NCBI GenBank assembly: GCA_011032825.1 | Contig: JAADJZ010000002.1 | Coordinates: forward strand, 2,170,001 to 2,234,000 | Length of the DNA: 64,000 bases | Origin: Massariosphaeria phaeospora | Lineage: Eukaryota; Ascomycota; Dothideomycetes; Pleosporales | Direction of reading: 5' to 3' | Part shown: positions 11,583 to 64,000 of the stretch, in pieces | Position numbering within the stretch: position 1 is the first letter of the stretch | How the letters are laid out: each line of letters begins with the position of its first letter | The notes under the pieces: model-generated | Database searches by the model: none | What the model saw: only the letters and a program-made list of their open reading frames with translations | What the model was told of the DNA's origin: nothing | Program-made: the position numbers and the translations under genes

Positions 11583-11701
11583 ACATACGACCATAGGACA
11601 CTGAATACAGCGCTTCCCGTTCGCTCAGCTGAACTTAAGCAGTGTACCGGCGGATTAGTAGTTAGGTGGGTGACCACTAGCGAATACCCGCTGTTGTATG
11701 T
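11583..11701 (+). rRNA. 5S ribosomal RNA
   Basis: About 119 nt that match the fungal 5S plan from end to end. It starts ACATACGACCATAGG, has the GCTTCCCGTTCGCTCAGC core and the ACTTAAGC box, then GGTGGGTGACCACTAGCGAA, and closes with CTGTTGTATGT, which pairs with the 5' end. The stem ACACTG pairs with CAGTGT, so a helix that differs from the usual fungal sequence keeps its pairing. Dispersed single 5S genes are normal in filamentous ascomycetes. Transcribed by RNA polymerase III from internal boxes. Whether it is a functional variant or an ageing copy is not certain. Confidence 0.9.
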
Positions 11702-11706
11702 TTTTT
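11701..11706 (+). terminator. Pol III terminator of the 5S gene
   Basis: A run of six T directly after the 5S sequence, the standard RNA polymerase III stop, with a second T-run at 11713-11719. Confidence 0.75.
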
Positions 11707-26069: not shown

Positions 26070-27293
26070 ATGTCTGTCTCAGAGGTTTCTAGCTTCAGGC
26101 ACCAGCCACTCGACCTACATCACCGTCAGATCAGGCTTTTACGTTATCGCGAGACCTCGGCGTCTCTGGATCTCAACTTTACGATCTCTCACCATGACCT
26201 CAATGACTGTCTACAGTATTGGGCACTATCATATACATGGGGAGAGGAAATCCCGCTTCATGCGATTTCCATCAACGATAACAGGTTTCTTATCCGCGAA
26301 AACCTACACAGCCTTCTCAAAGCAATCAACGCTGGCGCTCCGAGCAATCACAATGAGTTTCAGCCCCGCGACATGTACTTCTGGGTCGACCAAATCTGCA
26401 TCGACCAGAGCACTACCAGCGAGAGAAACCATCAGGTCGGCATGATGCAATCAATATACAAACAAGCCGAGTCCACAGTAATATGGCTAGGCTCCGAAAA
26501 TCACGCAGTTGTAGCTGCAATAGCGCGAGACGACACTGTTTCAGAAACCGCAGTGAATGATCTCTGGAGACAGCCATACTGGTCAAGGCTCTGGGTGGTT
26601 CAGGAGATCATGTCCAGCCAGTGCCTTTTACTCTTGTGTGGTCACGAAAGCGTGTCATGGGCAAAATTTGCGGACTACCACAAAGAGAGACGCCTCAACG
26701 ACTTGATTGGCGCATGGTATCCTCACGATCATGATACTCGCAGGATTGAACCGGACATCTGGCCGCTGATTAGAGAGAAGGAGGAATTTGGGACTGGCTA
26801 CGCGACCTTGAGCTATATCATCGACACCTTCGGGCGTCTCGGGTGCCAAAATACTAAAGACAAGATCTTCGGGGTTCTAGGTCTCGTCGAAGAACATCAC
26901 CGCGTCCCAGTCAACTATGGTCTGTGCAGGAGAGATCTATTCTTCGCCGTCATAGACAAGATACTCGCAGACGAAAGCCATAATTCGAGGCATATATTAG
27001 AAGACTTTGCACCCCGCTTGATGGAACTGTTACTTCTCGATGCCGATCCCCTTACCCGAAAACTATGGAACGCCACGGTGCCTTTGAGGGAGCAGAAATC
27101 AACAGCGCACCAAAAGTCTCTACTGCTACAGGCGAAGTTTAGGATGTTTAAAGCCTCTGGAAAGAGCTCGGACACTGGCCTACGGACGAAATTGCACCAG
27201 GTGGAGTTGGAGAAATCCAGATTAAATGATGCCATAATAGCTGTGTCGAAATACCCTTCCAATCACATGGGAGATGCGGCTTCAGTCAACTAG
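26070..27293 (+). CDS. HET-domain (heterokaryon incompatibility-type) protein
   Basis: An intronless gene for 407 residues. The HET domain spans about residues 50-185 and shows its three blocks: YWALSYTWGE, FWVDQICIDQ...ERNHQVGMMQSIYKQA with VIWLG, and PYWSRLWVVQEI. A helical region of about 200 residues follows and matches the usual NTRKDKIFGVLGL segment (here NTKDKIFGVLGLVEEHH). HET proteins mediate cell death on fusion of unlike mycelia or act as innate-immunity-like executors; partner and trigger are not visible. No NACHT or repeat domain is attached. Confidence 0.9.
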   Translation: MSVSEVSSFRHQPLDLHHRQIRLLRYRETSASLDLNFTISHHDLNDCLQYWALSYTWGEEIPLHAISINDNRFLIRENLHSLLKAINAGAPSNHNEFQPRDMYFWVDQICIDQSTTSERNHQVGMMQSIYKQAESTVIWLGSENHAVVAAIARDDTVSETAVNDLWRQPYWSRLWVVQEIMSSQCLLLLCGHESVSWAKFADYHKERRLNDLIGAWYPHDHDTRRIEPDIWPLIREKEEFGTGYATLSYIIDTFGRLGCQNTKDKIFGVLGLVEEHHRVPVNYGLCRRDLFFAVIDKILADESHNSRHILEDFAPRLMELLLLDADPLTRKLWNATVPLREQKSTAHQKSLLLQAKFRMFKASGKSSDTGLRTKLHQVELEKSRLNDAIIAVSKYPSNHMGDAASVN

Positions 27294-49329: not shown

Positions 49330-50520
49330 GTGATTTTCTGGCACGCAAGCTGGAGCTTACTGGGATGGGGCCAAGCCAGTGCTGACGGTATACAACCAAT
49401 ATAGATCGACTCCGCTTTCCAACTCACGGAGCACCTCAAGGCCCTCCACGCTTTCCTCACACACCCGGTCGGCTCGAACAGCACCGTAGCTCTGGATCGC
49501 GAGTCGGCACAAAAGCTCGCCCAACCGCCGGACAATGTTGACAAAACCATATGGCTCTACGAGCTCTGCCGCTTCCTCACGCAAAAGGTCAATGCCGTCG
49601 TCATAGCCCTCTTCGCCGATAGTCCTCCCTGCTCGTCGCTTACGTGCCCCGAGATGCGCGCTTCGGAATGGCAGTACCTCTGCGCTGTCCACGAGCCCCC
49701 CAAGTCCTGCTGCGCGATCGACTACTGCTGCCATACCTTGGACTGGGCCGCCAACTCGCTTGCACTGCCCAAGATATTCCCCTCGAGACTGTCATTGGGG
49801 TCCGACGTGGATGTCCAGCACCAACAAATCAAGCACATGACCAACATCTTCCGACGGGTATACAGAATCTTCGCGCATGCGTGGTTCCAGCACCGTGAGA
49901 TGTTCTGGAAAGTGGAAATGCGGTCTGGGCTGTATGTTCTGTTCAAGACAGTGTGCGATGCCTATGGCTTGATTCCCGAGGACAACTATACGATTCCGCC
50001 AGAGGCAGAGGGCATCGAACCGACTGCGGAGACCCCGATGGCTCCCCCACTGATCCTCCAGCGCGAGCCTTCAGATCCTGGACCACAAGACTCGGAGAAT
50101 TCATCCATCATTGAAGGCGTGACGGAGCACACCTTGTCCACGGCAGGGACTACGAAGCGGCATCGCCACTCGCCATCCGTCGGCGCCACTTCAGTTACTA
50201 CCGTCATGGAGGAGAGCGAAGAGGAGGAGGGTCTGTCGACGAAGGAAGGAAGCCCAACGCAGATTTCAGAAGACTCTGAAGACTACGAGTTTGAAGAGGA
50301 GGATGTCGCCGAGGCCCTTGGGGTTGCTGAGCCGAAGACAAACGAAGATGCCGCTGAGGTGGTCACAGAAGCAGAAGCAGAAGCAGATGCAGACGCAGAT
50401 GCAGAAGTAGATGCAGATGCAGATGCTGTTGAGGTTGCAGACAATCCCCTCGGGGCCGACGAGGCGGAATCGCAAAGCGCAAGTGATGATGCGCAGGAGG
50501 TCGAGACTACACCTGCGTAA
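49182..50520 (+). CDS. mob3: MOB-family protein of the phocein/Mob3 type (STRIPAK)
   Basis: Two exons, 49182-49325 and 49405-50520 (GTAGGT...ATATAG, phase 0), encode 419 residues. The MOB fold covers about residues 45-235: IWLYELCRFLTQKV; zinc ligands in CSSLTCPEM and HAWFQH; EWQYLCAVHEPPKSCCAIDY and KIFPSRLSL, as in phocein (Mob4) rather than Mob1 or Mob2. Fungal MOB3 is a subunit of the STRIPAK complex, which controls hyphal fusion and fruiting. The C-terminal 180 residues are disordered and acidic, with EAEAEADADADAEVDADAD-like repeats. Part of this tail-coding exon is duplicated at 60874-61008. Confidence 0.88.
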
Positions 50521-57869: not shown

Positions 57870-58231
57870 GAGGAGGGGCGAAAGGGAGGGAGGGGGAGAG
57901 GGGGGTGATGGAGCTGGTTTGATTTGGTATGCATGTTTGATGCTGGATACGCTGAGCGCAGACAGCGCATCCGTGGCAGAGTCGTTTCTATCGGCATCCG
58001 CGGTCCGGCAAGAGCAGTAATGATGACCACGCAGCTGGAAACACTTGCATGTAGGATAGCACGTGGATAGGTAGCGCGCGGGGCAAGACACGGACGAGCT
58101 ATGGTACCACACACACCGCATGTAACAAACAGTCCAGTCCAGTTCAGTTCAGTTCAGTTCAATTCAGTTCAGTCCAATCCTTCCTCACCGCCACATCTCC
58201 ATCTGCTTACTCACCGGCAGTATTCAGGTCC
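57870..58231. repeat. Left flank of the cassette array, with a TTCAG pentamer run
   Basis: 3' flank of the EXPERA gene. A TTCAG microsatellite (complement AACTG class) fills about 58131-58174, immediately before the first cassette. Confidence 0.65.
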
Positions 58232-58541
58232 GTATATAAGCCCCTCGAATCTCGCTATTTTCCTCCTCTTCTTCTTTTTCTTTTACACTTCTTCGTCGCA
58301 GTCTACGACGGGACTTCTAAAACTCCTGGCAACATTCTTCATGGGTTCGGAGTTGGGCGGGCGGTGGAAAAATTGACGAGATATGGCGATCATGGCAGAG
58401 TGGGTTGGTTTTGGGGCGGTGTAGCCATGGTGATGATGGTGAGAGTTAATGATGCTGAACATCTGCACACACACACAGACACACACATGTTCACGGATGG
58501 TTTGCGCGTTAGCGCTTCGAGATAAGGGAATAGATGGAGAG
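58232..58541 (+). repeat. Cassette 1
   Basis: TATA box 58232, a tract ending in CGCAG, TCTAAAA, ATGGG at 58341 (109 after the TATA start). The frame encodes 11 residues. A CA run lies in the distal part at about 58470-58490. Confidence 0.6.
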
Positions 58542-58807
58542 GTATATAAGCCCCCCCTCTCTTTGCCCTCTCTTTGCCCTCTCTACGAATTTCTTCTTCC
58601 ACTACGACTGCGCATCCATCTGCTTGATGCTATCTAAAAACTAGCACCAATCCAGTCCATGAGGATTTTCCTCCGTTGATTGAAACTAGAAATACACGCA
58701 TCCATGGAGTGGAGCAGGGTTTTCGGGGCGTCGAGTTTGTGTTACGAGGTGGAGTCGGTGATGTTGAGTATCTACACTCCACCTATCAACAATCCTCAAA
58801 GCAAAAA
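58542..58807 (+). repeat. Cassette 2
   Basis: GTATATAAG followed by seven C, CTCTACG tract, ATCTAAAAA, CCATGAGGATTTTC at 58659. Distal TTGAGTATCTAC at about 58764. Confidence 0.65.
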
Positions 58808-59112
58808 GCATATAAGCCCCTCTCCCTTCTCACCCCCACCGCTTTCTCTCTTTTCTTACCCTACGCTTCAATCTGCATGCATTATGCTGTCTAAAAACAA
58901 GCATTCCCCTACATGATGGAGATTGTCTTTTCGTGGCTTTGGAAAATAAGACAGGTGTTGGGAATGGAGTAAGGGTTAGGTTTGGCTGCGTTTAAGATGG
59001 GTGGTAGGGGATTGAGAGGGCGATAGTGGTGAGGCCAGTGGTGAAGAGTATATGCGCGCTGTAATAGAATAGTGGATGTAAAGGAGGGTAAAGTGAGTGG
59101 CTGGGTAGGTGG
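58808..59112 (+). repeat. Cassette 3
   Basis: GCATATAAGCCCC, CTACGCTTC tract, GTCTAAAAAC, ATGGAGATTGTC at 58916. Frame of about 17 residues. Confidence 0.6.
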
Positions 59113-59410
59113 GTATATAAGCCCCCTCTTGTTGTTCACTCTACGCTTCTTTATTGCTACATTATAGGCGCGCGAGTTCGCTGACTCTAAAAAGTATGAG
59201 CACATCCAATACATGGGGATTTTCGCTGTGCGTTTGGAAAAGAGGACTAGTCTCGTTCATGGGGGAAGGGGTTTGTGATACTGTTTGGCGTTGGTGTAAG
59301 AAAACGGGGATAGTCGTAGTAATGATGGTGATGATAGTGATAAGGAGAGGATGCTTAACATCTGCGCTTTGGACGTGTCACGTGGACGTCAAAATAGGTA
59401 AAGTAGGTGG
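59113..59410 (+). repeat. Cassette 4
   Basis: GTATATAAGCCCCC, ACTCTACGCTTCTTT tract ending TATAG, GCGAGTTCGCTGACTCTAAAA shared with cassette 5, ATGGGGATTTTC at 59213. Confidence 0.7.
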
Positions 59411-59693
59411 GTATATAGGCCCCCCTTGCCGTGCCGTTAATGCTTCTTTCTTTCTTACACACACCAGGCGTGCGAGTTCGCTAACTCTAAAACAAACCAT
59501 GTGCTTGTGCATGAATTGTCCTCGTAGGCTCGGAAAACTAAAGTTTATTGAGAACATAGAGCAGGAGTTTTGGTTGCTGTTCAGAATGTGTTGATAGTAG
59601 TTTAAGAGAATACTAGTCTAACACCTAAGATGTAGGGATTTGTGGCGATGACGGTGAGTAGCTGCTGTTTCGAGACAGTGGACGTGGAGTTGG
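59411..59693 (+). repeat. Cassette 5
   Basis: GTATATAGGCCCCCC, TTCTTACAC tract ending CCAG, GCGAGTTCGCTAACTCTAAAA, ATG at 59511. Distal GGTGAGTAGCTGC at about 59653. Confidence 0.7.
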
Positions 59694-59925
59694 GTATATA
59701 AGCCCTCTTATTGCCCTCTCTACGCTTCTTTCTTACCATTTTGAGTCCTTCTATTTAAATGAAAAAGAGTATACATTGAACTTATGGGGATTCTCTTTGC
59801 GAGTTCAAAAAATAATATACATCAGGATCATGGAGCAGAGATTTTTGTTCATTTTGAGAGTTGATCAACATAAAGAGGTAACGATGATGGTGAGTATCCG
59901 CAGCTTTGAAGCCGGGGGGGAGTGG
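59694..59925 (+). repeat. Cassette 6
   Basis: GTATATAAGCCC, CTCTACGCTTCTTTCTTAC tract, TTTAAATGAAAA, ATGGGGATTCTC at 59784. Distal GATGATGGTGAGTATCCGC at about 59883. Confidence 0.7.
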
Positions 59926-60156
59926 GTATATAAGCCCCCCTTTCGTACCTTGTACAGCATTCCTCTTGCATTACACATTCCTCTGTGGTCTGCTCGATCT
60001 TTCTAAAATATATCCCAGGTATGCTCATGGCGGAGGATTTTGCTTGCGAGAAAAGAAATAGGAAACTGGGTGATGGGGCAGGGTTTGCATGCTTGGTAGG
60101 GTAGTGATAGTGCTATCGATGATGATGATGATGATGATGGTCGAGGATGAAGGTGC
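59926..60156 (+). repeat. Cassette 7
   Basis: GTATATAAGCCCCCC, TTCTAAAATATA, ATGGCGGAGGATTTTGC at 60027, followed by TTGCGAGAAAAG. A GAT triplet run lies at about 60118-60139. Confidence 0.7.
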
Positions 60157-60437
60157 GCATACAGCTCCCCCCTTTCTCGTCGTACCTTCCACACTCTTTA
60201 CAGTACATATTGTTCCGCTTGGTCTGCCTGAAAAGACATGGAATGGCGATTCAAGACGACTGTCTTCGCTTGCGAAAAGATACAGTCTGTCCGGATCATG
60301 GAGTGAGGATCTTGGAGACCTTTGGGGTCGCTTTGGCGATTGCGTTGTGTGACGGTGGTGGTGAGTATCTACAGTCTTTGTAGTGAGGTATTTAGCTAAC
60401 ATTATCCAGCCGTCTCGTTTGCGTGCCTGCTTGTCAA
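60157..60437 (+). repeat. Cassette 8 (degenerate box)
   Basis: The TATA box is reduced to CATACAGCTCCCCCC, but CTGAAAA, ATGGCGATTC at 60243, CTTGCGAAAAGA and distal GGTGAGTATCTAC at about 60354 remain. Confidence 0.55.
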
Positions 60438-60693
60438 GTATATAAGCCCCCTTCCTCGCACTCTTAGCATTCTCTTATCCAAAACCTAGGTTCGCGAGTC
60501 TCCTGTCTCTAAAAAAAAACGAACAAAAGCGTCCATGGCGACTCTTTGCTCGCGAGGAAGAGATAGCCAACATAGGTTATGGGGTAGGCTTGGATGCTTT
60601 CTCTGAAGGGGGTAACAGTAGTGATAGTAAGTATCTACATTTTGAGATATTGAGGTATTGGCACGTTCAATTAATAGTGTTTCCGCTAGTCAA
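60438..60693 (+). repeat. Cassette 9
   Basis: TCAAGTATATAAGCCCCC (shared with cassette 10), tract ending CCTAG, GTCTCTAAAA, CCATGGCGACTC at 60535, CTCGCGAGGAAGAGA, distal AGTAAGTATCTAC at about 60624. Confidence 0.72.
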
Positions 60694-61175
60694 GTATATA
60701 AGCCCCCTCTCCTCTTACCCTTAGCGCTTTCTTCTCACAATCTAGGCTTGTGAGTCTGTAGTCTCTAAACTGTACCTAACAAGACGCATGGGGGATTTTT
60801 CTCGCTCGCGAAACAGCAGTTAAGAGTAGTAATTGGGCAAGGCATGGATGCTTTCCACGGCTGCAAAGCCGCCATGGAGGAGAGCGAAGAGGAGGAGAGT
60901 CTGTCAGCGAAGGAAGGAAGCCCGTCACAGATTTCGGAAGACTCTGAAGACTACGAGTTCGAAGAGGAGGATGTGGCCGAGGCTGTTGAGCCGAAAACAG
61001 ACGAAGATTCTCGATGGCGCTGATCTCCACTCCATGCTGACAGCTGTGGTGCGGTCTACCCAAGCAAATTGCGCATTACTACTTCGTCGTACTACGTGGC
61101 CGTCGTCGTGGCAGATTTCTGGGTGGGGGGGTGGATGGTAGACGGTGGCTATGAAGAGTATCTACAAGTTGCAGA
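60694..61175 (+). repeat. Cassette 10, carrying the MOB fragment
   Basis: GTATATAAGCCCCC, tract ending TCTAG, GTCTCTAAAC, ATGGGGGATTTTTC at 60788, CTCGCGAAAC. Its distal half contains the captured MOB exon piece, which explains the 482-base length. Distal AGAGTATCTAC at about 61154. Confidence 0.7.
60844..61023 (+). pseudogene. Captured fragment of the MOB acidic-tail exon, still open
   Basis: 60874-61008 matches 50206-50349 of the mob3 exon at roughly 90% by eye, with one in-frame 9-base gap and several silent changes (TCA/TCG, TTT/TTC, GTC/GTG). An ATG at 60844, from cassette sequence, reads in frame through MDAFHGCKAA into MEESEEEESLSAKEGS and ends with TGA at 61021, for 59 residues. It has neither the MOB domain nor the gene's own promoter. 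It could be an inert insert or a chimeric short protein. Confidence 0.8.
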
Positions 61176-61424
61176 GGTACATAATTCCCTCTCCTCCTAC
61201 TTTTCTATAGCTTCCTCTTCTGCACTTTACGTCTATCTTGTTGATGATTTTCAAAATCGAATACTACAAAAACCATGGGAAGTCGGTGGACTGCGTAAAA
61301 GAGATTGTTGGTGTGTGCTATGGGGCAGACGACGGGTTTGAGAAGGTCGTGATGATGGTAACGATGATGATAGTAAGTATCTGCATCCGCACTCCTGAAT
61401 CTTATGTCAATGCTCGCCAAGGAA
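61176..61424 (+). repeat. Cassette 11 (degenerate box)
   Basis: GGTACATAATTCCC in place of the TATA box, TTTTCAAAAT for TCTAAAA, CCATGGGAAG at 61275, distal ATGATAGTAAGTATCTGC at about 61364. Confidence 0.55.
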
Positions 61425-61673
61425 GTATAGAAGCTCCCTCTTCGTCTATCTACTCTTTCTTCCTCACACTTTGCAGTTCTACTGTAGAGTTTCTAGAAAG
61501 AAATAGAGGACGGCGCCATGGAGATTTTGCGAGTTCCGTAAAAAGAAATGGTTCCTAGCGCATGTGCTGGAACAGGACTTTTGCGCTGATTTCGATAACT
61601 GGCTTGGGAGGGAGTAATAATAAACATCCTCGAACCGGAGCTGTAGGTGTTTGTGATAGTAAAGATTTGGCGA
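61425..61673 (+). repeat. Cassette 12
   Basis: GTATAGAAGCTCCC, tract ending TTGCAG, TTTCTAGAAAG, CCATGGAGATTTTGCGAG at 61518; the frame closes after seven residues. Confidence 0.6.
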
Positions 61674-61925
61674 GTATACAAGTCCCCTTCTCCTTCCTCT
61701 TAATTTTCCCTTCTCTATCCCGCAGGCCATTGAGGCGCGAAAAAAATCAATTCCTCAACGAGCCAGGGCGCTTCCGTGGGCTCTGGAGTAAGATTTAGAG
61801 ATGCAGATGCATGGAGGAAGAATTTTTCGCTTCCAATGATTCGGCCAAGTGGACGACAGTGGTGCTGGTGAGTAGCAATGGTTCTGTTCGGGTTCGAGGG
61901 CGTATTGGTGCCATTTAAGAGGTAA
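61674..61925 (+). repeat. Cassette 13
   Basis: GTATACAAGTCCCC, tract ending CCGCAG, ATGGAGG at 61811 (137 after the box, the longest spacing seen), distal GGTGAGTAGC at about 61866. Confidence 0.55.
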
Positions 61926-62169
61926 GTATATAAGTCCCTCGGTGTTTTTTCAACGCATTCTTCTCTATACTTCACAGTACCGATCACGTTCTTACTAAAA
62001 CAGATTCAAACTCTGTCCATGGAGGTTCTCGCCGCGGTCTTCCCAAAAGAAAGTGGCTCCTGGTGTATGGAGCAAGGATCTCGGATTGCTTTCCATGACT
62101 CTGACGGAAAAGGTTGGTGATGGTGGTGAGCATATGCGATCACGAATTCGGTGATTACGAGATACCTAG
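61926..62169 (+). repeat. Cassette 14
   Basis: GTATATAAGTCCC, tract ending TTCACAG, TTACTAAAAC, CCATGGAGGTTCTCGCCGCG at 62019; a frame of about 33 residues follows. Distal GGTGAGCATATGC. Confidence 0.65.
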
Positions 62170-62386
62170 GTATATAAGCCCCCTTCCACGCCCTTTCAAC
62201 GCTTTCTTTTCTTTCACACTCGCAGCTCTACTGCATTCTGTTTAAAGCTTTGCGAATTCCCCTACAATGAGATTCTTATTTTTTGTCGTGCGCGGTGCAA
62301 GATCTTCGAGCAATAATCCCAAGACAATGGTAGTGAGTATCTGCAATCTTGGACTACACACATTCTTCAAAACGGTTGACTGCAGG
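62170..62386 (+). repeat. Cassette 15
   Basis: GTATATAAGCCCCC, CACACTCGCAG, TGTTTAAAGC, ATGAGATTCTT at 62267, distal AGTGAGTATCTGC at about 62333. Confidence 0.65.
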
Positions 62387-62637
62387 GTATAAATGAGCCC
62401 TTACTCATCGCATCCACTGCTTGCTTCTATACGTTTCACATGTCCCATTGTGACCTCTCTAGAATTCAATATCGGTACTGACCAAGAGAATTCTCGTCAC
62501 TTTCTTAGCATTGCCAATGCATCAAGATTCCCGGGCAATGATCTCGGTTGCTCATGCTGAGAATCTGCGTTTCTAAATCGGATGCTCGCCCTCGAGGGTA
62601 TTAGCTGTTGCTGTTGTGGTTTCTAAGCAAGGAGTGA
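62387..62637 (+). repeat. Cassette 16
   Basis: GTATAAATGAGCCC, CTTCTATACG tract, CTCTCTAGAATTC; no clear ATGG. Distal CTGAGAATCTGC at about 62559. Confidence 0.45.
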
Positions 62638-62888
62638 GTATATAAGAACCTCTCTTCGCCTTCTACGCTCTCTTGCTTTCTTCTACACCCGCAGTATGTA
62701 CTGCTTTTCTCTAAAATACGCAGGTAACGAGGCTATGGAAGTTTTCTTCGCGGTCCAGAAACTTTGGTACATTTCATTCATGGAGAAAGCTTTGGTGTTA
62801 CTTAACCGAGGTAATGATGATGATGATGTCATGATAACCCGTGGTCCGAGATAAGTAACTACGCGCTTGACACCGCCTAACCAACGAG
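62638..62888 (+). repeat. Cassette 17
   Basis: GTATATAAGAACC, CTACACCCGCAG, TCTCTAAAATACG, ATGGAAGTTTTCTTCGCG at 62735; a frame of about 40 residues follows. Confidence 0.62.
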
Positions 62889-63184
62889 GTAGATAAGCCG
62901 TCATTCTCCTAGTTTGCCTAATCTCTTCAATACAATCATCCACTTGATTCTCTGAAATACTTTTAACGAGATTGATGGAAGCTCCCTCCTATCTGAAACA
63001 CGGGTTCAAACGCTACATGGAGCCAGCTCTCGTCTTCTCCTAAACAAACGCGATACAAAAGAGAAGTTTGAGTCTTCTAACTTGCAAAGAAACCTGTAAC
63101 GGACTATGTTGTTTATACGGGTGTCAAAGTAGTGATGCGACGCATTGCTAATCCGCTGTGCACGTGATCTTCGATACGAGCGAG
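62889..63184 (+). repeat. Cassette 18 (degenerate)
   Basis: GTAGATAAGCCG, TCTCTGAAATAC, ATGGAAGCTCCC at 62975. The distal part is unlike the others. Confidence 0.45.
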
Positions 63185-63434
63185 GTATATGAGGTGATTC
63201 GTCTGATCAATAGCGGAGTATAGCCTCAACCTGATCTAGACCTACTGTAGGATAACACTATAAGGTAAACAATAGTTGCCTTTACCCTAAAGGACTTACG
63301 TTACACTTGAACAAGGATGAGATGAAAACTGGAGATGAAAACTGGAGATGAAAACTGGAGATGAAAACTGGAGATGAAAACTGGAGATGAAAACTGGAGA
63401 TGAAAACTGGAGATGAAAACTGTAAACGAGCGAG
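63185..63434 (+). repeat. Cassette 19 (heavily degenerate)
   Basis: GAGCGAGGTATATGAG is all that remains of the box and no ATGG module is visible. The second half holds a 13-base minisatellite. Confidence 0.4.
63322..63424 (+). repeat. 13-bp minisatellite
   Basis: Almost eight perfect head-to-tail copies of ATGAAAACTGGAG. No spacers, so not CRISPR-like. It lies just upstream of the box of cassette 20. Confidence 0.95.
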
Positions 63435-63649
63435 GTATATAAGTCCCTTCTTAAGTCCCTTCTTCTTACTTGGTCTTTTCTATTACTACATACGGCAGCT
63501 CGAAGGCTGTTGCAATCTAAATATTGACGAAATTCGATCGCATGAAGGAATCGCTGGCTCTTTTTCCTCTTGAAAACTTGCGTGGAGCGTGTCATGATGC
63601 GACTCGTTATTGTGTTATTCTTTTTCTCTATTGTCTGCGACTCCGCGAG
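63435..63649 (+). repeat. Cassette 20
   Basis: GAGCGAGGTATATAAGTCCC with the tail TTCTTAAGTCCC duplicated, tract ending GGCAG, AATCTAAATA, ATGAAGG at 63542; a frame of about 38 residues. Confidence 0.6.
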
Positions 63650-63874
63650 GTATATAAGCTCCTCCTTCTTGCGTCAATTTGAGTTATTCTGCTCTATACT
63701 ACAAGAGACCAAACTGTTAGATTCTAAAAACGAATGCCGGCATATCCATGGACTTGTGTCCGTTCTCCCGTTTCTTTAAAATATTCAACAGCTCCGTTCC
63801 ATGTTGGGGTGAAGCAGAGCATTACTTCCTAGTTTATCTCAGCCTCACTCTCCCTTGCCGTATGGCGAGGGAGG
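63650..63874 (+). repeat. Cassette 21
   Basis: GCGAGGTATATAAGCTCC, GATTCTAAAAACGAATG, CCATGGACTTG at 63748; the frame runs on for about 50 residues into the next cassette. Confidence 0.6.
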
Positions 63875-64000
63875 CGTATAAGTCCCGCTGCTTGCATTAG
63901 TTTCTTCCGCTTTCTTAATTATAACTTGAACCTGTCACGTTTTAAAAGCGAATCTACACCAATTGATGGCATTTTTTTCGTTCTCTCCTCTCGAAAATGT
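63875..64000 (+). repeat. Cassette 22, cut by the window edge
   Basis: GCGTATAAGTCCC, GTTTTAAAAGCGAATC, ATGGCATTTTTTTCG at 63966, open to the last base of the window. Confidence 0.55.

What the first reader, a model, noticed from the sequence alone, without database searches (positions are those of the whole stretch)
58232..64000. Undescribed tandem array of TATA-box cassettes with modular conservation
About 22 head-to-tail units keep the same ordered modules (upstream GTRAGTATCTRC, GTATATAAGCCCCC, pyrimidine tract, TCTAAAA, ATGG) while the DNA between them has diverged almost beyond alignment. Ordinary satellite decay should erode all positions alike; here short promoter-like elements persist at near-constant spacing. 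That fits a family of tiny TATA-driven transcription units, coding or non-coding, in which each unit keeps its own promoter. I know of no described fungal family with this layout. A promoter-bearing satellite with biased gene conversion is the main alternative.
Basis: partly seen in the sequence, partly recalled or inferred. Interest (0 to 1): 0.92.

Follow-up and report, generated by a model that had tools for sequence, protein, structure and literature searches.

The report
Arrays of tiny putative RNA genes
A fungal genome carries hundreds of short, head-to-tail DNA units that each keep their own promoter and the same small non-protein layout, including a stretch of fixed length but free sequence; they match no RNA family we searched and may be a new kind of RNA gene, although nobody has yet shown that they are transcribed.

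Summary
The window is from Massariosphaeria phaeospora. The array has 21 units here, runs on to about 66.5 kb, and belongs to a dispersed family: 241 units at E<1e-3 in 227 kb fetched. A strict unit pattern has 92 genome hits on 15 contigs, 0 reversed. Layout: upstream element, GTATATAAGCCCC, pyrimidine tract, inverted repeat, TAAAA, 17-20 free nt, ATGG, often a second AAAA-N-ATG. The TAAAA-ATGG gap is 17-20 nt for 109 of 236 TAAAA. The gap sequence is as diverged as a length-free spacer, while upstream, mid and right segments keep homology: constrained blocks around a length-fixed, sequence-free segment. No coding signal. Scores fall 5' to 3' in 15 of 18 arrays. Against: the inverted repeat lacks compensatory evolution, and no RNA data were reachable. 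Best reading: hundreds of autonomous TATA-driven non-coding transcription units. A guide-like role for the free segment is untested; about 9 Argonaute loci make it worth testing.

The parts
58222..64000 (+). tandem array: 21 hand-delimited units within the window; continues past the window end to about window-equivalent 66,483 (E<1)
58130..58178 (+). (CAGTT)n tract just upstream of the first unit; a similar tract lies upstream of the first unit of array D (L019) and, more weakly, array A (L013)
58233..58243 (+). TATA box, unit 1 (TATATAAGCCC)
58292..58312 (+). predicted inverted repeat/hairpin upstream of TAAAA, unit 1 (-7.0 kcal/mol for the 34 nt before TAAAA)
58318..58344 (+). TAAAA (58318-58322), free 18-mer (58323-58340), ATGG (58341-58344), unit 1
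58543..58662 (+). unit 2: TATA 58543, TAAAA 58635, free 19-mer 58640-58658, ATG 58659 (ATGA)
58809..58919 (+). unit 3: CATATAAG 58809, TAAAA 58892, free 19-mer 58897-58915, ATGG 58916
59114..59216 (+). unit 4: TATA 59114, TAAAA 59188, free 20-mer 59193-59212, ATGG 59213; the 20-mer matches only itself in the genome at up to 2 mismatches
59411..59514 (+). unit 5: TATA 59411-59423 (1 mismatch); TCTAAAA, free 18-mer 59493-59510, then ATGA
59694..59706 (+). TATA box of unit 6 (1 mismatch)
59927..60030 (+). unit 7: TATA 59927, TAAAA 60004, free 18-mer 60009-60026, ATGG 60027
60439..60538 (+). unit 9: TATA 60439, TAAAA 60510, free 20-mer 60515-60534, ATGG 60535
60695..60791 (+). unit 10: TATA 60695, CTAAA 60765, free 18-mer 60770-60787, ATGG 60788
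60869..61008 (+). fragment inside unit 10, 85% identical (127/149 aligned columns, 9 gaps) to window 50201-50349 of a Mob1/phocein gene
61927..62022 (+). unit 14: TATA 61927, TAAAA 61996, free 18-mer 62001-62018, ATGG 62019
62170..62182 (+). TATA box of unit 15 (exact)
62638..62738 (+). unit 17: TATA 62638 (2 mismatches), TAAAA 62712, free 18-mer 62717-62734, ATGG 62735
63651..63751 (+). unit 20: TATA 63651, TAAAA 63725, free 18-mer 63730-63747, ATGG 63748
63874..63969 (+). unit 21: degenerate TATA box GCGTATAAGTCCC from 63874 (3 mismatches), TAAAA 63943, free 18-mer 63948-63965, ATGG 63966

Best explanation
This is a genome-wide family of small autonomous non-coding transcription units, arranged in mostly polar head-to-tail arrays. 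Each unit has an upstream element (about GGTGATGATGGTGATCATC; GTGAGTATCTAC in the window), a strict TATA box, a pyrimidine-rich initiation region, and a short RNA that begins near the inverted repeat and contains TAAAA, a free segment of 17-20 nt, ATGG, and often a second AAAA-N-ATG. Selection keeps the promoter and the framing modules in many units. The free segment is held in length, not in sequence, as expected of a loop, linker or address segment measured by whatever binds the two flanking boxes. Newer or better-maintained units tend to lie at the 5' end of an array and old ones decay at the 3' end. Shown: layout, dispersal, rigid spacing, inverted-repeat excess, lack of coding signal, constraint against a saturated spacer, polarity in most arrays. 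Inferred: transcription, the polymerase (Pol II), the start site, and any binding partner or target.
For: Family-wide modules among 184 detected units (detection favours conserved ones): TATA core positions 90-99% identical, AAAA 90-98%, ATGG 86-100%. Alignment-free gap peak: TAAAA-to-ATGG gap 17/18/19/20 nt = 11/34/42/12 outside the window array, mean 1.7 per other distance; 0/6/2/2 in the window array, mean 0.18. Genome-wide strict unit pattern 92 against 0 reversed; CTAAAA-N17-20-CATGG 153 against 46. Length-free spacer at chance (z 0.15) while up 0.66, mid 0.86, right 1.25 (160 same-cluster pairs). Inverted-repeat excess only in windows starting -34, -30 and -26 from TAAAA (t -4.7, -6.5, -7.1); the other 17 of 20 sense windows have |t| 1.8 or less. 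No coding signal. Polarity: 15 of 18 arrays of six or more units, Wilcoxon p 0.010. Strand composition fits rightward transcription: pyrimidines after TATA, then G over C after ATGG, GC skew 0.27-0.37. Second module: after ATG1 the AAAA-to-ATGG gaps of 17-20 nt number 57, against 0-5 at each other gap length from 0 to 49; found in 42 of 110 units (gap 16-21 and ATGG or ATGA allowed, 39 of them 17-20).
Against: No transcript evidence at all. Compensatory changes do not support the hairpin as a selected RNA structure: changed stem pairs stay canonical no more often than control pairs (0.30 against 0.30; 0.25-0.27 against 0.25-0.26). Where both sides changed, 9 of 37 (0.24) against 0.31, and 0.40-0.44 against 0.36-0.37, a small excess that I did not test. 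The antisense strand shows nearly the same folding excess. Arrays contain decayed units. Three of 18 arrays run against the polarity, one significantly (array B, rho +0.57, p 0.004), and only 6 of the 15 negative ones are individually significant. The HMM was seeded with the window array. Cross-species conservation could not be tested: no other fungal genome is held.
Confidence: 0.55

Rival explanations
1. Promoter-bearing satellite without function: a tandem repeat that spreads by unequal exchange, in which promoter modules are kept only because transcription helps amplification, or because detected units are young.
For: Head-to-tail arrays, falling scores from 5' to 3' in 15 of 18 arrays, many degenerate units, a captured gene fragment in one unit.
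Against: No homogenisation: the length-free spacer between units of one cluster is at chance while 4-13 bp modules persist. In the continuous window array 16 of 21 units keep the TATA with at most 2 mismatches. Gene conversion is not expected to leave islands of 4-13 bp (general knowledge). The rigid 17-20 nt gap with free sequence is not expected of decay.
Confidence: 0.2
2. DNA-level element: TAAAA and ATGG are half-sites of a DNA-binding protein about two helical turns apart, and the arrays are regulatory, boundary or origin-like elements rather than RNA genes.
For: TAAAA-to-ATGG start distance 22-25 bp, about two turns; repeated as AAAA-ATGG-AAAA-ATGG in part of the units; inverted repeat nearly as strong on both strands; no clear compensatory evolution; the upstream consensus contains a palindrome (my reading).
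Against: The order upstream element, TATA, pyrimidine tract, then downstream modules, and the strand-specific pyrimidine-then-purine composition, are those of a directed transcription unit; a binding array would not need a TATA box in each copy.
Confidence: 0.17
3. Micropeptide or leader-peptide genes: ATGG is a start codon with a short leader.
For: ATGG is a near-constant downstream module and a promoter-like element lies upstream.
Against: In-frame length hardly longer than in the other frames (median 19 against 17 and 17 codons); differences by codon position 244/264/248 in 87 pairs; eight L021 units read ATG, one codon, stop; position -3 is not the purine of a good start context (T 35, C 32, A 23, G 20 of 110).
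Confidence: 0.04
4. Pol III small-RNA genes (U6-like: TATA, 5' hairpin, then a CTAAAA...ATGG-like core; the U6 resemblance is recalled, not tested by alignment).
For: TATA upstream, 5' inverted repeat, short units.
Against: Rfam finds no U6-like or other match near threshold in 5 loci; A and B boxes are rarer than in one composition shuffle (5 and 2 of 110 against 18 and 6); only 12 of 110 units have TTTT in the 60 nt after ATG1, and 27 of 110 have it already between TATA+25 and TAAAA.
Confidence: 0.04

Closest known systems
C. elegans 21U-RNA (type I piRNA) genes (PMC3597512; I read the abstract and passages)
   Same: Large numbers of tiny autonomous units, each with its own upstream promoter motif; a unit-specific sequence of 21 nt; genomic clusters.
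   Different: The worm motif is a different one, and worm units are Piwi-dependent transcripts; they are not known as head-to-tail copies of a ~250 bp TATA-bearing unit (recalled). Here the variable segment has fixed boxes on both sides, and transcription and Argonaute binding are unknown.
CRISPR arrays (recalled)
   Same: Array of repeats alternating with unique segments of fixed length; one end younger.
   Different: Here the repeat is long, diverged and promoter-bearing, no source of the segments was found in the limited tests, nothing shows that they are acquired, and the host is a eukaryote.
Box C/D guide RNAs (recalled)
   Same: Sequence-free segments of fixed length between short invariant boxes, twice per RNA.
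   Different: Boxes differ, Rfam does not match, no target complementarity known.
Tandem 5S rRNA or snRNA gene arrays (recalled)
   Same: Tandem units each with a promoter and a short non-coding product.
   Different: Those keep the RNA nearly identical between copies; here only short boxes are kept.
Promoter-bearing satellites
   Same: Head-to-tail repeats with promoter-like motifs.
   Different: No homogenisation; modules held while spacers are saturated.

Membership tests
C. elegans-type 21U-RNA genes | each unit has its own promoter element upstream of a unique ~21 nt sequence at an optimal distance | tested here: inconclusive
   a promoter-like TATA and a free 17-20 nt segment are present in each intact unit, but the TATA-to-segment distance varies and no RNA was seen
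C. elegans-type 21U-RNA genes | core motif CTGTTTCA | tested here: not met
   read from the consensus of the profile built on 184 units, which has no such motif; not searched unit by unit
C. elegans-type 21U-RNA genes | Piwi/Argonaute-bound small RNA product | not testable with these tools
   no RNA data; about 9 Argonaute loci in the genome make it possible only
Rfam RNA families | match at gathering score | tested here: not met
   window at gathering score: only a 5S rRNA at 11583; L013, L015, L021, L022, L030 at E<=3: 7 weak hits, all far below gathering; the other loci were not scanned
Protein-coding tandem gene family | open frame from ATG with codon-position bias | tested here: not met
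Homogenised satellite DNA | concerted evolution: copies of one array similar along the whole unit | tested here: not met
   same-cluster far spacer z 0.15, N -0.15 against up 0.66, mid 0.86, right 1.25; Tandem Repeats Finder reports short repeats there but no array of the ~250 bp period
Pol III small RNA genes | A/B boxes or a terminating T-run behind the RNA | tested here: not met
   5 and 2 of 110 units with A or B box; 12 of 110 with TTTT within 60 nt after ATG1
CRISPR arrays | identical short repeats and spacers matching foreign or genomic DNA | tested here: not met
   repeats diverged; of 4 segments tested genome-wide 3 match only themselves at up to 2 mismatches, the fourth has 7 further 2-mismatch places against 4 for its reversed control
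RNA hairpin as a conserved structure | compensatory base changes | tested here: not met
   overall retention equals control; among pairs with both sides changed below control, slightly above

The most novel reading that the evidence does not exclude
The arrays are a fungal guide-RNA system: several hundred promoter-bearing mini-genes, each giving a short RNA in which the 17-20 nt segment between TAAAA and ATGG is a unit-specific address read by one or more of the genome's roughly 9 Argonaute loci (or another effector), with new units arising at the 5' end of each array, that is, a piRNA-like repertoire in an ascomycete.
Probability: 0.13. Interest if true: 0.97.

Novelty: categorically new. 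Interest (0 to 1): 0.78.

Why it matters
If the units are transcribed, a fungus has hundreds of tiny non-coding genes of one unnamed family, with a length-fixed but sequence-free segment that looks like an address. That would either give fungi a guide-RNA repertoire comparable to worm piRNAs or reveal a new class of structured promoter arrays. Both are directly testable with one strain and standard sequencing. Even as a dead family it would show how promoter-bearing repeats can persist in arrays for a long time without homogenising.

Tried and rejected
Hypervariability of N17-20 beyond neutral: first suggested by close pairs and by cluster bootstraps against up, mid and right segments (5 of 6 contrasts exclude zero, with a heuristic scaling for length). 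It was not separated from other spacers with fixed windows, and the length-free far spacer is equally at chance, so I do not claim it. Single pairs remain striking (L015 7939/7641: up 53/66, mid 49/54, right 45/50 aligned positions identical; N aligns only 13 positions, with long gaps). Counter-examples: L012 4966/5280 share most of the segment, and so does the second-module pair L023 1323/874.

Hairpin between N17-20 and its own unit (miRNA-like): none (8.04 own against 7.95 swapped). Targets or sources of N in the fetched DNA: 22 of 74 have an exact match of at least 12 nt elsewhere against 56 of 370 shuffles, the longest 14 nt in a CCA-type repeat; a weak excess, and the shuffles keep composition only. 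Genome targets of four segments out of 74: none beyond chance. Joined-segment search of the genome found nothing, not even the segments themselves, so it is uninformative. RIP: arrays are not clearly marked (TA/AT 0.88 against 0.71 in window 1-58,000; (CA+TG)/(AC+GT) 1.12 against 1.15). Shared leader upstream of the first units: only a (CAGTT)n tract in 2-3 of 10 arrays. Splice-donor reading of GTRAGTATCTRC: the family consensus there is GTGATCATC, so not a donor. Helitron, LTR and U6 resemblances were considered from memory and not pursued beyond Rfam. Gene models or transcripts inside the arrays were not searched for. Other species: the collections held have no fungal genomes; scans of viral contigs (10 stretches) and genome contigs (58 stretches), one match each, fit chance by my arithmetic.
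Full report
WHERE IT IS. The window is C12:2170001-2234000 of a 42.1 Mb assembly in 51 contigs. Its Nup155 reading frame is 100% identical (99% covered) to a protein of Massariosphaeria (species name cut off in the listing; contig length 2,441,825), and 2,441,825 is the length of C12, so I take it as Massariosphaeria phaeospora, a pleosporalean ascomycete (species and order recalled).

THE OBSERVATION. Between 58,232 and 64,000 I delimit 21 head-to-tail units by hand. Sixteen keep GTATATAAGCCCC with at most two mismatches. Tandem Repeats Finder reports no array of this period, because the units have diverged. A profile built from them and iterated on 20 fetched 10-kb stretches finds 184 units at E<1e-3; with four more stretches it finds 241 at E<1e-3 and 296 at E<1 in 227 kb. 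Arrays are head-to-tail, with rare inverted units (for example L012 5618-5927 and L014 3397-3623). A strict pattern, ATAAGYCC-N46-74-TAAAA-N17-20-ATGG, has 92 exact hits in the genome and none when read backwards; they fall on 15 contigs in 39 clusters, 20 of them with more than one strict hit, and 56 of the 92 lie in the stretches I fetched. By proportion the genome would hold roughly 400 detectable units (241 x 92/56; inference). A related pattern with 20 specified bases gives 58 stretches with one match each in 257 Gb of prokaryotic DNA, where about 54 are expected by chance with equal base frequencies (my arithmetic), and 10 such stretches in viral contigs.

ANATOMY. In order: an upstream element, about GGTGATGATGGTGATCATC family-wide and GTGAGTATCTAC in the window; some tens of nt; GTATATAAGCCCC (core positions 90-99% identical among detected units); a pyrimidine tract (C+T 85%); an inverted repeat; TAAAA; 17-20 nt; ATGG; about 20 nt; often AAAA, 17-20 nt and ATG again (42 of 110 units with a first module, gap 16-21 allowed); then a spacer of free length. 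The TAAAA-to-ATGG gap is the one rigid distance. Counting every TAAAA and every ATGG without alignment, the gap is 17, 18, 19 or 20 nt 11, 34, 42 and 12 times outside the window's array (217 TAAAA), with a mean of 1.7 per other distance, and 0, 6, 2 and 2 times in the window's array (19 TAAAA), with a mean of 0.18. TATA-to-AAAA is looser (median 73, 5-95% range 64-83) and ATG1-to-ATG2 looser still (33-65).

THE FREE SEGMENT. The 17-20 nt between TAAAA and ATGG have no shared sequence (under 0.2 bits at nearly all model positions between the boxes). They are not complementary to the rest of their unit. Four of 74 were tested against the genome: three match only themselves at up to two mismatches; the fourth has seven more places at two mismatches against four for the reversed control. 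In the best pairs of units the flanks are 80-95% identical on both sides while this segment is unalignable; two related pairs do keep it (L012 4966/5280, and a second-module pair in L023). I asked whether it evolves faster than neutral DNA. Against upstream, mid and right segments it is less similar in five of six cluster bootstraps, but those segments hold constrained elements. Against the length-free spacer it is not clearly different: same-cluster z is -0.15 for the free segment and 0.15 for that spacer, against 0.66, 0.86 and 1.25 for upstream, mid and right. A fixed-window version of the test also failed to separate it from spacers. The supported statement is that its sequence is free and its length is held.

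CONSTRAINT. Because the length-free spacer between units of one cluster is at chance, the units are old, yet TATA, TAAAA and ATGG stay. Detection favours conserved units elsewhere, but in the continuous window array all units are in view and 16 of 21 keep the TATA. Homogenisation of the whole unit is excluded by the same numbers. Maintenance by selection on many units is the simplest reading.

INVERTED REPEAT. In 110 units, 30-nt windows starting -34, -30 and -26 from TAAAA fold better than dinucleotide shuffles (t -4.7, -6.5, -7.1); the other 17 of 20 sense windows have |t| of 1.8 or less. The predicted stem ends 1-5 nt before TAAAA in 68 of the 104 units that have one. Against it as a selected RNA structure: changed stem pairs stay canonical no more often than control pairs (0.30 against 0.30; 0.25-0.27 against 0.25-0.26); pairs changed on both sides are below control and slightly above; the antisense strand shows nearly the same excess and the sense preference is weak (t -2.2). 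It may act at the DNA level.

NOT CODING. Frames from ATG1 are hardly longer than the other two (median 19, 17, 17 codons), differences are even over codon positions (244/264/248 in 87 pairs), and eight L021 units stop after two codons. No Pol III signals: A and B boxes are rarer than in one composition shuffle and T-runs behind ATG1 are few. Rfam matches nothing but a distant 5S rRNA in the window at gathering score and nothing near threshold in five other loci at E<=3.

POLARITY. Profile scores fall from the 5' to the 3' end in 15 of 18 arrays of six or more units (mean rho -0.32, Wilcoxon p 0.010; window array rho -0.88). Six of the 15 are individually significant; one stretch of array B goes the other way significantly (rho 0.57), and two more are positive without significance (rho 0.05 and 0.64). 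The profile was seeded in the window. Newer or better-kept units therefore tend to lie upstream.

HOW IT MIGHT WORK. Best reading: each unit is a small RNA gene with its own promoter, probably read by Pol II (inference from the TATA box, pyrimidine tract and lack of Pol III signals). Two boxes at fixed distance are bound, in the RNA or the DNA, by something that measures the gap but does not read it, or reads it differently in each unit. The boldest reading is a guide repertoire: the genome has 14 Piwi-domain matches at about 9 loci, RdRP matches at 5 loci and two Dicer-dimer matches. Nine Argonautes looks like many for an ascomycete (recalled, not tested), some of the matches contain stops that may be introns or decay, and none is tied to the arrays.

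COMPARISON. C. elegans piRNA genes are the nearest known kind: tiny autonomous units, each with its own upstream motif (PMC3597512, abstract and passages read). The layout, motif and tandem origin differ. Seven paper searches for a counterpart gave six empty answers and one list of three unrelated titles; they were narrow and the library holds open-licence papers only. Three further searches were for the organism, 21U-RNAs and fungal Argonautes (listings seen).

VERDICT. The kind is new to me and to the libraries searched.

Noticed in passing
window 60869-61008 and 50201-50349: A fragment of the nearby Mob1/phocein gene (85% identical over 149 aligned columns) sits inside unit 10 of the array; the copied stretch begins close to a CATGGAGG, like the array's own ATGG module.
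   Followed up: partly
genome: C48:1042064, C4:304143, C15:135285/211896/714125, C27:253236/402317, C30:179087, C12:733588: About nine loci with Argonaute Piwi domains (14 exon-level matches) against only two Dicer-dimer matches; some have in-frame stops that may be introns or decay. Looks like an Argonaute expansion.
   Followed up: partly
window 58130-58178; L019 and L013 upstream of the first unit: A (CAGTT)n tract lies just upstream of the first unit in two arrays and weakly in a third, of 10 examined: possibly a shared leader or only a common microsatellite.
   Followed up: partly
window 63319-63422: Perfect 13-bp tandem repeat (GAGATGAAAACTG, 8 copies) in the long unit near the 3' end of the array.
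   Followed up: no
window 11583-11702: A single dispersed 5S rRNA gene (Rfam 85.1 bits).
   Followed up: no
window 26070-27293: HET-domain (heterokaryon incompatibility) gene.
   Followed up: no
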